Positions 33,771 to 36,059 of a DNA stretch of 64,000 bases are shown piece by piece. The first letter of the stretch is position 1. Each line of letters starts with the position of its first letter. The notes below the pieces were generated by a model. The model did no database searches and was not told the DNA's origin. It saw only the letters and a program-made list of their open reading frames with translations. The position numbers and the translations under genes were made by a program. The stretch comes from Cyanobacteriota bacterium SRBZ.bins.94.201705 (GTDB taxonomy: Bacteria > Cyanobacteriota > Cyanobacteriia > Cyanobacteriales > Cyanobacteriaceae). The stretch covers positions 370,196 through 434,195 of the forward strand of contig JAUQQP010000044.1 of NCBI GenBank assembly GCA_030549855.1, read 5' to 3'.

Positions 33771-33816
33771 TCTCAAAGGGGGGTTACCCCCCCGTGGCAT
33801 GAGTTAAATCACAAAG

Positions 33817-33849
33817 CCCTCCACCTCTCTCTGGTGGGGGGTTATTTTT
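33817..33849 (+). terminator. psaB intrinsic terminator
   Basis: CCCTCCACC (33817-33825) pairs with GGTGGGGGG (33833-33841) around a CT loop and is followed by TTATTTTT. It should stop psaA-psaB transcription 18 nt before the ZorA-like start codon. A smaller GGGGGG/CCCCCC hairpin at about 33777-33793 precedes it. Confidence 0.85.
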
Positions 33850-33866
33850 GTATATACTTGAAATCC

Positions 33867-35387
33867 ATGGTAACTGTAATTGGATTGTTGACCATTGTAC
33901 TATTAAGTTTAGAAATCCTCAGTGTTATCGGCTATGGCAGGAGAGAGTTTTTACTGTTAGACAAGGCCATTAGTTTTTTGAAAACACGACAATCTGAGGT
34001 AATCTTTACCCGAAAACACTGTGATGATGACGACTTGTTTTTATGGCTTGGTGGACATTTGGCAGGAGAGATTTCCCAGGATGCCATAAAACCTAAAAGA
34101 GACAGTAGAGGCTATTTCCTCCTCTCCCACTACCCAGAAATACTCCAGAAAAAAACACCTCCTAGTATTGTTTATTATTCCCCCACTCTCCTGACGTCAA
34201 TGGGAATTCTAGGCACATTTTTGGGCATATTTTTGGGCTTACAAAAGGTGGGGACTAATATTGAAAATACCGAATCCCTCCTCACCTCCGCCAATCAACT
34301 GTTGTCGGGAATGAAAACCGCTTTTTCTACTTCTTTAGCAGGCTTGGGTGGCGCCTCTGTTATGATTATTGTCATGGCATTGGGGGCCAATTTTAAACAG
34401 AGAAAAAAAGCCAATTTTAGAAGAAAACTCGGTGAAATTTCCTACCTACAACCTCCTCAACAACTCCTATCCACCATCGAAAACTACGTTATTACCACAA
34501 ACTGTAAACCCCCTCAACCCCTTTTGAATGCCCAAGAAATAGCCTCCGCCATTGAAAGAGTCTTCGCCCCCTATTTGAGGAGCATAAAAGAGGAAATAAA
34601 AGCCATAAAATACCAGGAGGAACATAATAACAAAATTTTCCAGTCATTGGAAGCGAAAATAACGCTACAATTCGAGACATACGAGAAACTAAACAAGGAG
34701 TTATCTCTTATTGTCCAGGAGTTTAGAAAGGAAATAATTACACCCCTGAAAGAAGAAATAGACAAAGGCAATCAACTGGGAGAAAAGTTTTTATCAACAG
34801 TCACCAGCATGGAACAACAAATAGAAAACATAAGCAATGTGGTAAGGGAAATAATGGAAAAAAACCAAAAATTACAACAAGAAATAAGTCAACAATTCCA
34901 AGTTACTCTGTTAGGATTTAGAGTTGACAGTGAGAAAGTTTTACACCAGACAGCAACAGAGATGAAAACAGCTGTAACAGAAGGAGTAATGGCAATGGAA
35001 ACTCAAAAACAAGCCTATGAAACTACTGCCGCTGAATTTGTTAACACCTTCCGAGAGACTAGACAACAACTAGAAGAAACTCTGCTTACCCAATTAAGTC
35101 TACAAAAAGAGATGTTGGAAGGAGTAAAAAAGTCCACAGAAAAGATTCTCACCTCCACCACTCTTGTCTTCACTCAACAGGCAGAAACCATCAAAACCAT
35201 AGGGATGGAATCCTCCTCCTTGTTACATAAAACAAAAGAAAATCTCTTGGAAACCCTCATGAATATCGACGGAATCTTAGAACAGATATACACATCTTTT
35301 AGGGAACAAATGGAACAGTTTTTACTACAATACCAAGAATTGTTAGCCGAATTTTTACAACGCCATAAGGACGAATTTTTTTCATAA
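33867..35387 (+). CDS. ZorA-like MotA/ExbB-family channel with coiled-coil tail
   Basis: The 506-residue product has a membrane helix at residues 2-23, then a cytosolic segment, and two helices at about 103-126 and 152-174. These carry the MotA/TolQ/ExbB marks SPTLLTSMGILGTFLGIFLGL and MKTAFSTSLAGLGGAS. Residues 180-506 form a very long, charged, Gln/Glu-rich coiled-coil tail (for example QLEETLLTQLSLQKEMLEGV). This layout is that of ZorA, the stator of the Zorya antiphage system. The ATG at 33867 is chosen; an upstream in-frame GTG (33834) lies inside the psaB terminator stem. A MotB-like partner follows after 21 nt. Function here (defence, envelope or motility) is not proven. Confidence 0.8.
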   Translation: MVTVIGLLTIVLLSLEILSVIGYGRREFLLLDKAISFLKTRQSEVIFTRKHCDDDDLFLWLGGHLAGEISQDAIKPKRDSRGYFLLSHYPEILQKKTPPSIVYYSPTLLTSMGILGTFLGIFLGLQKVGTNIENTESLLTSANQLLSGMKTAFSTSLAGLGGASVMIIVMALGANFKQRKKANFRRKLGEISYLQPPQQLLSTIENYVITTNCKPPQPLLNAQEIASAIERVFAPYLRSIKEEIKAIKYQEEHNNKIFQSLEAKITLQFETYEKLNKELSLIVQEFRKEIITPLKEEIDKGNQLGEKFLSTVTSMEQQIENISNVVREIMEKNQKLQQEISQQFQVTLLGFRVDSEKVLHQTATEMKTAVTEGVMAMETQKQAYETTAAEFVNTFRETRQQLEETLLTQLSLQKEMLEGVKKSTEKILTSTTLVFTQQAETIKTIGMESSSLLHKTKENLLETLMNIDGILEQIYTSFREQMEQFLLQYQELLAEFLQRHKDEFFS

Positions 35388-35408
35388 TGCCAATTAGCAA
35401 AGGAAAAA

Positions 35409-36059
35409 ATGAGCGACTATTTTATGTGGCAAGAAGAAGAGGAAAAACCAGAAGGAGAAGATTCAGGCGTCTGGTTGTCAGTAGGCGACTTAATGTCAGG
35501 ATTGTTAATGTTTTTTGCCCTCCTGTTTATAGCTACCTCTGCCCAACTGGTAAGATACGAGGAAATAATAAAAACACTGCCAGAAAGAATTATAGCCTCA
35601 TTCCAAGAAAAAACAGGAGTCTACGATAAGCTAAAAAAAGACGAAAAAACAGGAGACTTAATTCTCCCCACAGAAATACTGTTTGCAGAGGGAAGTCATC
35701 AGTTGAAACCAGAAGGCAAACAGTTTTTGGATGAATTTATTCCAGCATTTAGTGAAGTAATTTTTAACGATAAACTGATTGCTAACAAGATAACTAGTAT
35801 TGTCATTGAGGGCCACACCAGTTCAAAAGGAACAGAAAAAGACAACATGGAATTGAGTTTTAAACGGGCATTGGCAGTAGGGGAATACATCAACAGCATT
35901 GACTTTTCCCACAGACAATCCTTCCGACAAAAAATAGTAGTAGCAGCAAGAGGAGAAACAGAGGCAGACCAAAAGTTCGACAATCCCAAGGACAGAAAAG
36001 TAAAAATTAAATTCCAATTCACAAGAGATTATTGGCACAACCCCCGTAGTCAAAACTAG
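35409..36059 (+). CDS. ZorB-like MotB/OmpA-family partner
   Basis: The 216-residue product has a short acidic N-terminus, one membrane helix (residues 25-47) with an Asp at its start in SVGDLMSGLLMFFALLF (Asp27, the expected ion-carrying residue), and a C-terminal OmpA-like peptidoglycan-binding domain. That domain shows ILFAEGSHQLKPEGKQFLDE, IVIEGHTSSKG and ELSFKRALAVGEYI. The layout equals ZorB and MotB. It forms a two-gene unit with the ZorA-like gene. No ZorC, ZorD or ZorE homologue follows; the next gene is hemF. Confidence 0.82.
   Translation: MSDYFMWQEEEEKPEGEDSGVWLSVGDLMSGLLMFFALLFIATSAQLVRYEEIIKTLPERIIASFQEKTGVYDKLKKDEKTGDLILPTEILFAEGSHQLKPEGKQFLDEFIPAFSEVIFNDKLIANKITSIVIEGHTSSKGTEKDNMELSFKRALAVGEYINSIDFSHRQSFRQKIVVAARGETEADQKFDNPKDRKVKIKFQFTRDYWHNPRSQN

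What the first reader, a model, noticed from the sequence alone, without database searches (positions are those of the whole stretch)
33867..36059. Orphan ZorAB-like motor pair directly after psaB
The sequence shows a MotA/ExbB-type protein with three membrane helices and a coiled-coil tail of over 300 residues, followed 21 nt later by a MotB/OmpA partner with an Asp at the start of its helix. That is the ZorA-ZorB layout. Known Zorya systems add effector genes (ZorC and ZorD, ZorE, or others), but the next gene here is hemF. The pair may be a two-gene derivative, use an effector elsewhere, or have an envelope role unrelated to phage. This is the best candidate for an undescribed system in the window.
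Basis: partly seen in the sequence, partly recalled or inferred. Interest (0 to 1): 0.75.

Follow-up and report, generated by a model that had tools for sequence, protein, structure and literature searches.

The report
Effector-less Zorya motor with clipped tail
The two genes encode a membrane motor descended from a bacterial anti-phage system (Zorya) that has lost its effector genes and the end of its motor's tail, yet both genes are still kept intact by selection, and the same stripping has happened at least four times in cyanobacteria.

Summary
At 33867-35387 and 35409-36059 lies an intact zorA-zorB pair: three membrane helices plus a ~300-residue helical tail, then 21 nt to a TM-Asp/OmpA partner. 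It is ZorAB by profile (ZorA1 4e-104, ZorB1 3e-63) and by fold, not flagellar or TolQR. Its nearest homologues sit in a cyanobacterial operon, c2-zorA-zorB-zorC, where c2 is an undescribed ~115-aa protein and no zorD is nearby. The window genome and its sister species keep only zorAB, between psaB and hemF. They have no ZorC or c2, and ZorA stops just before the best-conserved tail segment. Among 129 non-redundant pairs, all 96 with a local ZorC keep the tail tip, and all 20 without the tip lack a local ZorC. In one genus ZorC has moved elsewhere in the genome and the tip is kept. Tip and ZorC were lost together on 6 branches (at least 4 forced by support). The window pair is under purifying selection (omega 0.14 and 0.13), so it is not obvious debris. 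I read it as a convergently reduced, effector-less Zorya stator. That its output is ion flux or an unlinked partner is inference. The tail tip as the ZorC coupling site is testable.

The parts
33867..35387 (+). zorA-like gene (506 aa): MotA/TolQ/ExbB-type motor subunit with long helical tail, clipped before the conserved tail tip
   Evidence: PADLOC ZorA1 PDLC00597 4.4e-104 covering profile 8-517 of 683; AF2 model; Foldseek top hits are solved ZorA
33867..34454 (+). motor domain of ZorA (three membrane helices plus small alpha/beta cytoplasmic insert), residues 1-196; conserved GTF and STS motifs
34455..35384 (+). cytoplasmic coiled-coil-like tail, residues 197-506; ends at about full-length model position 528 of 693, just before the QNNLLxxTLxxQRxGLxxVV segment
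35388..35408 (+). 21-nt zorA-zorB gap with an AGCAAAGGAAAAA ribosome-binding-like stretch
   Evidence: sequence
35409..36059 (+). zorB-like gene (216 aa): MotB-type TM helix plus OmpA peptidoglycan-binding domain
   Evidence: PADLOC ZorB1 PDLC00609 3e-63; Pfam OmpA 3.9e-13; MotB_plug 2.4e-4
35487..35489 (+). codon of Asp27 at the start of the ZorB TM helix (ion-pathway Asp)
   Evidence: invariant in 16 homologues; equivalent D24 needed for defence in known Zorya I (PMC11890865)
35679..35993 (+). OmpA-like peptidoglycan-binding domain, residues 91-195 (H136, T137, L149, R153, R196 kept)
33815..33843 (+). terminator-like hairpin after psaB; the zorA ATG lies 23 nt further on

Best explanation
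This is a reduced Zorya stator: a ZorA-ZorB pair that descends from a four-gene cyanobacterial Zorya-type operon (c2-zorA-zorB-zorC) and has lost c2, the EH-signature protein ZorC and the C-terminal tip of the ZorA tail, while keeping the motor, the ion-pathway Asp, the peptidoglycan-binding domain and most of the tail shaft. SHOWN here: homology, derivation, co-loss with ZorC, recurrence, intact frames, purifying selection. INFERRED: five ZorA and two ZorB assemble as in solved ZorAB; ZorB holds peptidoglycan; disturbance of the wall gates ion flow that turns or bends the ZorA rod. INFERRED from the pattern: the lost tip is where the tail couples to ZorC, so this pair cannot recruit that effector. 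Its output is most likely the ion flux or rod movement itself, or a partner encoded elsewhere. I put about 0.85 on the origin (effector-less derivative) and about 0.35 on ion flux, rather than a partner in trans, being the output.
For: Profiles: ZorA1 4e-104, ZorB1 3e-63. Fold: the only hits below E 1e-3 are solved ZorA chains, among them a tail-tip deletion (8qyy) that still formed a solvable complex. Ancestral operon: c2-zorA-zorB-zorC in the nearest family members; zorC = PADLOC ZorC1 up to 2.5e-200, Pfam EH_Signature. Window and sister species share psaB-zorA-zorB-hemF, with no ZorC or c2 in either genome. Rule: 96/96 pairs with local ZorC have the ZorA tip; 20/20 clipped pairs lack local ZorC; of 11 full-tail pairs without local ZorC, 10 belong to genus g6, where every genome tested carries ZorC elsewhere. 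Length is not the cause: ZorA as short as 481 and 533 aa keeps the tip beside ZorC, and 599-aa orphans lack it. Tree: 6 changes, at least 4 forced by well-supported branches, bootstrap 6-6; window + sister nested (100/100) among four-gene systems of their own family. In Nostocales the reduced pair lies at the same locus as intact four-gene systems. Selection: omega 0.14 (zorA; motor 0.11, tail 0.16) and 0.13 (zorB) between the two species, against 0.20-0.51 for ZorA and 0.08-0.48 for ZorB in intact systems.
Against: Nostocales orphans end at different tail positions (model 463-585), which looks like erosion. The stem branch to the window pair is long (1.12 per column), which fits relaxed constraint as well as a change of function. 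Published ZorAB pairs without effectors do not defend (PMC8565338; PMC11890865). The sign test over independent pairs has too few pairs to be significant (4 pairs, p 0.125). No third gene recurs, so there is no positive evidence for any partner. dS of 1.3 for zorA is near saturation.
Confidence: 0.7

Rival explanations
1. A relic: zorAB is what is left of a dead Zorya system and is on its way out.
For: Effectors gone; tails end at varied points in Nostocales orphans; long stem branch; one clipped locus (L280) has only a partial c2 remnant.
Against: Both genes intact and syntenic in two species at about 71%/80% identity; omega 0.14 for zorA, lower than in the intact systems compared, and 0.13 for zorB, within their range. 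20 pairs in 6 clades keep open frames; TM Asp and key peptidoglycan-binding residues invariant in the aligned homologues, orphans included.
Confidence: 0.17
2. Still an anti-phage system, working with an effector encoded elsewhere in the genome (not ZorC), which binds the shortened tail.
For: Split systems occur: one cyanobacterial genus keeps ZorAB and ZorC at separate loci. A SWI2/SNF2 helicase similar to the ZorD profile exists in the window genome.
Against: No ZorC in the genome. The helicase hits lie far from zor loci and also occur in control genomes, so they look housekeeping. Nothing recurs beside orphan pairs.
Confidence: 0.22
3. Domesticated envelope stator: an ion-driven, wall-anchored device for cell-wall or outer-membrane upkeep, loosely like Tol-Pal.
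For: Fixed chromosomal places among housekeeping genes within clades; purifying selection; in genus g171 an orphan zorB was found in all six genomes that matched, the full system in four.
Against: No envelope gene recurs beside the pairs; the genome has its own ExbB/TolQ-type protein; sporadic distribution argues against a core role.
Confidence: 0.25
4. A flagellar-type or TolQR/ExbBD stator that merely resembles Zorya.
For: Shared MotA_ExbB and OmpA domains.
Against: MotA_ExbB is below its cut-off; ZorA/ZorB profiles are far better; Foldseek gives ZorA at E below 1e-3 and MotA/TolQ only at E above 0.3; long tail.
Confidence: 0.01

Closest known systems
Zorya type I (ZorABCD), e.g. ZorAB of E. 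coli (PDB 8QYD, 8QYY) and Shewanella ANA-3 (PDB 8VVN)
   Same: Homologous motor, TM Asp, OmpA domain, long cytoplasmic tail; best profile and fold matches
   Different: No ZorC, no ZorD; ZorA lacks the tail tip; placed among housekeeping genes
Cyanobacterial c2-ZorA-ZorB-ZorC operon (found here; ZorA1 PDLC00597, ZorB1 PDLC00609, ZorC1 PDLC00618)
   Same: Same subfamily; the window pair nests inside it with full support
   Different: Window pair lacks c2, ZorC and the ZorA tip
Zorya type II (ZorABE) and type III (ZorABFG)
   Same: ZorAB core
   Different: No ZorE, ZorF or ZorG beside the pair; ZorA2 and ZorA3 profiles far weaker
MotAB, TolQR, ExbBD stators
   Same: 5:2 ion-driven motor superfamily
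   Different: No long tail; weak sequence and fold match

Membership tests
ZorA/ZorB protein families (subfamily ZorA1/ZorB1) | Profile match to ZorA and ZorB, adjacent in that order | tested here: met
   4.4e-104 and 3e-63, 21-nt gap
ZorA/ZorB protein families (subfamily ZorA1/ZorB1) | TM Asp in ZorB and OmpA peptidoglycan-binding residues | tested here: met
   D27, H136, T137, L149, R153, R196, against mutants listed in PMC11890865
ZorA/ZorB protein families (subfamily ZorA1/ZorB1) | Full-length ZorA tail including tip | tested here: not met
   Ends at model position about 528 of 693
Zorya type I system | ZorC present | tested here: not met
   No PDLC00618 match in the genome at E 0.01 or 0.001, while the same search rings in many relatives
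Zorya type I system | ZorD helicase in the operon | tested here: not met
   Next gene is hemF; SNF2-like matches lie on other contigs
Zorya type II system | ZorE HNH protein in the operon | tested here: not met
   Neighbours are psaB and hemF
Zorya type III system | ZorF and ZorG in the operon | tested here: not met
   Neighbours are psaB and hemF
Zorya system of any type | Protection against phage | not testable with these tools
   Needs plating assays
ZorAB complex | ZorA5-ZorB2 assembly with ion flow | not testable with these tools
Flagellar MotAB / TolQR / ExbBD | Best profile and fold match to those families | tested here: not met

The most novel reading that the evidence does not exclude
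Cyanobacteria have repeatedly turned an anti-phage motor into a stand-alone two-gene machine by removing its effector together with the tail tip that couples to it; the stripped motor has a function of its own, driven by ion flux and wall anchoring.
Probability: 0.4. Interest if true: 0.75.

Novelty: new variant of a known kind. Interest (0 to 1): 0.6.

Why it matters
How the ZorA tail passes a signal to the effectors is an open question in Zorya. Nature has deleted the tail tip several times, in every sampled case together with the local ZorC, and kept it where ZorC merely moved elsewhere in the genome. That points to the tip as the ZorC coupling site and names a short, testable stretch. It also shows that effector-less ZorAB is retained under selection, so defence-finder hits to ZorAB alone should be neither counted as complete Zorya nor dismissed as fragments.

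Tried and rejected
Flagellar/TolQR origin: rejected. Hidden effector beside the pair: no recurring third gene among 21 orphan loci, and no ZorC relic within the fetched loci. ZorC or c2 elsewhere in the genome: none. ZorD elsewhere: only unlinked SNF2 helicases that also ring in control genomes; a first accession tried turned out to be another ZorC model and rang nowhere, so it shows nothing. Empty site between psaB and hemF in relatives: hemF has other neighbours outside this genus, so no empty site could be shown. First genome-contig scan with the single ZorA sequence found nothing. Simple tail shortening as the rule: rejected, because short ZorA with a tip occurs beside ZorC. c2 fold: confident model (pLDDT 93) but no PDB match below E 1e-3 and only helical-hairpin hits at Z up to 7.3; not evidence of a new fold. 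The paper on E. coli Zorya structure (doi 10.1038/s41586-024-08493-8) is not held; its tail deletions are known here only through PDB titles.

Full report
1. What is there. Between psaB (stop 33770) and hemF (start 36135) lie two intact genes on the + strand. The first (33867-35387, 506 aa) has three membrane-type helices, a small alpha/beta insert and a long helical tail (AF2). The longer start GTG 33834 falls inside a terminator-like hairpin after psaB (33815-33843), so ATG 33867 is preferred. The second (35409-36059, 216 aa) has an Asp at the start of its membrane helix and an OmpA domain.

2. What family. PADLOC profiles give ZorA1 4.4e-104 and ZorB1 3e-63. Pfam sees MotA_ExbB just below its cut-off and OmpA above it. 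In Foldseek the only PDB hits below E 1e-3 are ZorA chains (8qyh, 8qyd, 8qyk, 8qyy, 8vvn); MotA and TolQ come at E above 0.3. NCBIfam Zorya models are hit but below their curated cut-offs. So the proteins are ZorA and ZorB, in a subfamily far from the NCBIfam models.

3. What the intact system looks like. I surveyed cyanobacterial homologues and named genomes. The usual operon is c2-zorA-zorB-zorC. zorC matches PADLOC ZorC1 (up to 2.5e-200) and Pfam EH_Signature. c2 is a ~115-aa protein with no Pfam or PADLOC match, found in 23 of 386 cyanobacterial genomes, nearly all with this ZorA. No zorD lies nearby; the SNF2-type hits in these genomes are unlinked. The same c2-zorABC unit occurs in Vibrio, right after a type II set zorA2-zorB2-zorE.

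4. What is missing in the window. The window genome (99.9% complete, 51 contigs) and its sister species have neither ZorC nor c2. Their ZorA ends at about position 528 of the 693-position full-length model, directly before the best-conserved tail segment (0.95 bits per position, consensus FeeQnnLLeetLgkQregLaeVVen). There is no room for remnants (21 nt between the genes, 75 nt before hemF).

5. A rule across loci. Of 129 non-redundant pairs (anchored on zorB; tandem zorB copies count separately), 96 have a local ZorC and all 96 keep the tip. Twenty are clipped and none of these has a local ZorC. Eleven keep the tip without a local ZorC, and two lie at contig ends. Of the eleven, ten belong to one genus (g6, Microcoleus/Tychonema), where all 13 genomes tested carry ZorC elsewhere, and one is a Pelatocladus locus whose genome I did not search. 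Length does not explain it: ZorA of 481 and 533 aa beside ZorC keeps the tip; orphans of 589-599 aa lack it. Four genomes carry both a full system and a clipped pair.

6. How often. On a tree of motor domain plus ZorB (tail columns left out) the orphans need 6 changes; well-supported branches force at least 4, and the bootstrap range is 6 to 6 (FastTree agrees). The 6 tip-loss branches coincide with 6 of 8 local ZorC-loss branches; if branches were exchangeable the chance is about 1e-10. That assumption is generous: the stricter sign test has only 4 usable pairs and cannot reach significance (p 0.125). The window pair and its sister nest with 100/100 support among four-gene systems of their own family. 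In Nostocales, clipped pairs (L285, L298, L279, L091) lie at the same chromosomal place as intact systems (L084, L093, L098, L222, L294), with matching genes on one or both sides. This shows reduction in place.

7. Is it alive? Between the two species omega is 0.14 for zorA (motor 0.11, tail 0.16) and 0.13 for zorB. Nine neighbouring genes gave 0.01-0.16, leaving aside psaA, whose comparison is not between matching copies because the sister contig ends there. Intact systems gave 0.20-0.51 for ZorA and 0.08-0.48 for ZorB. dS for zorA is 1.3, so the value is rough, but decay is not what it looks like. The stem leading to the pair is long (1.12 per column): a burst of change followed by constraint, as expected after a change of function, though loss of constraint at the reduction step would look similar.

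8. How it probably works. From solved ZorAB (PMC11890865; PDB 8QYD, 8QYY, 8VVN) I infer a ZorA5-ZorB2 ion-driven motor held to peptidoglycan by ZorB, with a cytoplasmic rod. Ion-path and peptidoglycan-binding residues are kept. In known systems ZorA tail mutations and loss of any component abolish defence, and ZorAB alone does not defend. So this pair most likely does not act through ZorC-type effectors. Its output may be ion flux, rod movement on an unlinked partner, or envelope upkeep; nothing here separates these. The tip-ZorC rule suggests that the lost tip is the coupling site.

9. Standing. It is ZorAB by family but not a Zorya system by the defining gene content of types I, II or III. 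I found no paper on effector-less ZorAB or on c2 in the held library; most subscription papers are not held, so prior description is not excluded.

Noticed in passing
L065:9294-9638, L235:5627-5977, L263:5541-5879 and others: c2: an unnamed ~115-aa protein next to ZorABC in cyanobacteria and gammaproteobacteria, no Pfam or PADLOC match, confident AF2 model (helical hairpin plus sheet), no PDB fold match. With no zorD nearby, c2-ZorABC may be an undescribed Zorya type.
   Followed up: partly
L263:1943-10650 (Vibrio jasicida); similar gene order in L271, L282, L300, L306, L310, L312: A type II set (zorA2-zorB2-zorE) directly followed by c2-zorA1-zorB1-zorC in one gene run: two Zorya motors in one locus.
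   Followed up: partly
L072, L204, L209, L211, L212, L216: Operons with one zorA and two different zorB genes in tandem (about 250 and 220 aa), which suggests a heterodimeric ZorB.
   Followed up: no
L071, L085, L086, L184, L188 with L169-L171: Split system in Microcoleus/Tychonema: zorAB next to spermidine/putrescine-type transport genes, zorC alone elsewhere in the genome.
   Followed up: partly
L002:1060-2959 (own genome, contig C45): A second long-tailed MotA/ExbB-type protein (479 aa) with a 156-aa partner; only weak similarity to ZorA profiles.
   Followed up: no
window 33778-33867: Two hairpins follow psaB (GGGGGGTTACCCCCC and 33815-33843) and a TATACT-like box sits just before the zorA ATG, so the zorA message may be leaderless or made by read-through from psaAB.
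   Followed up: no
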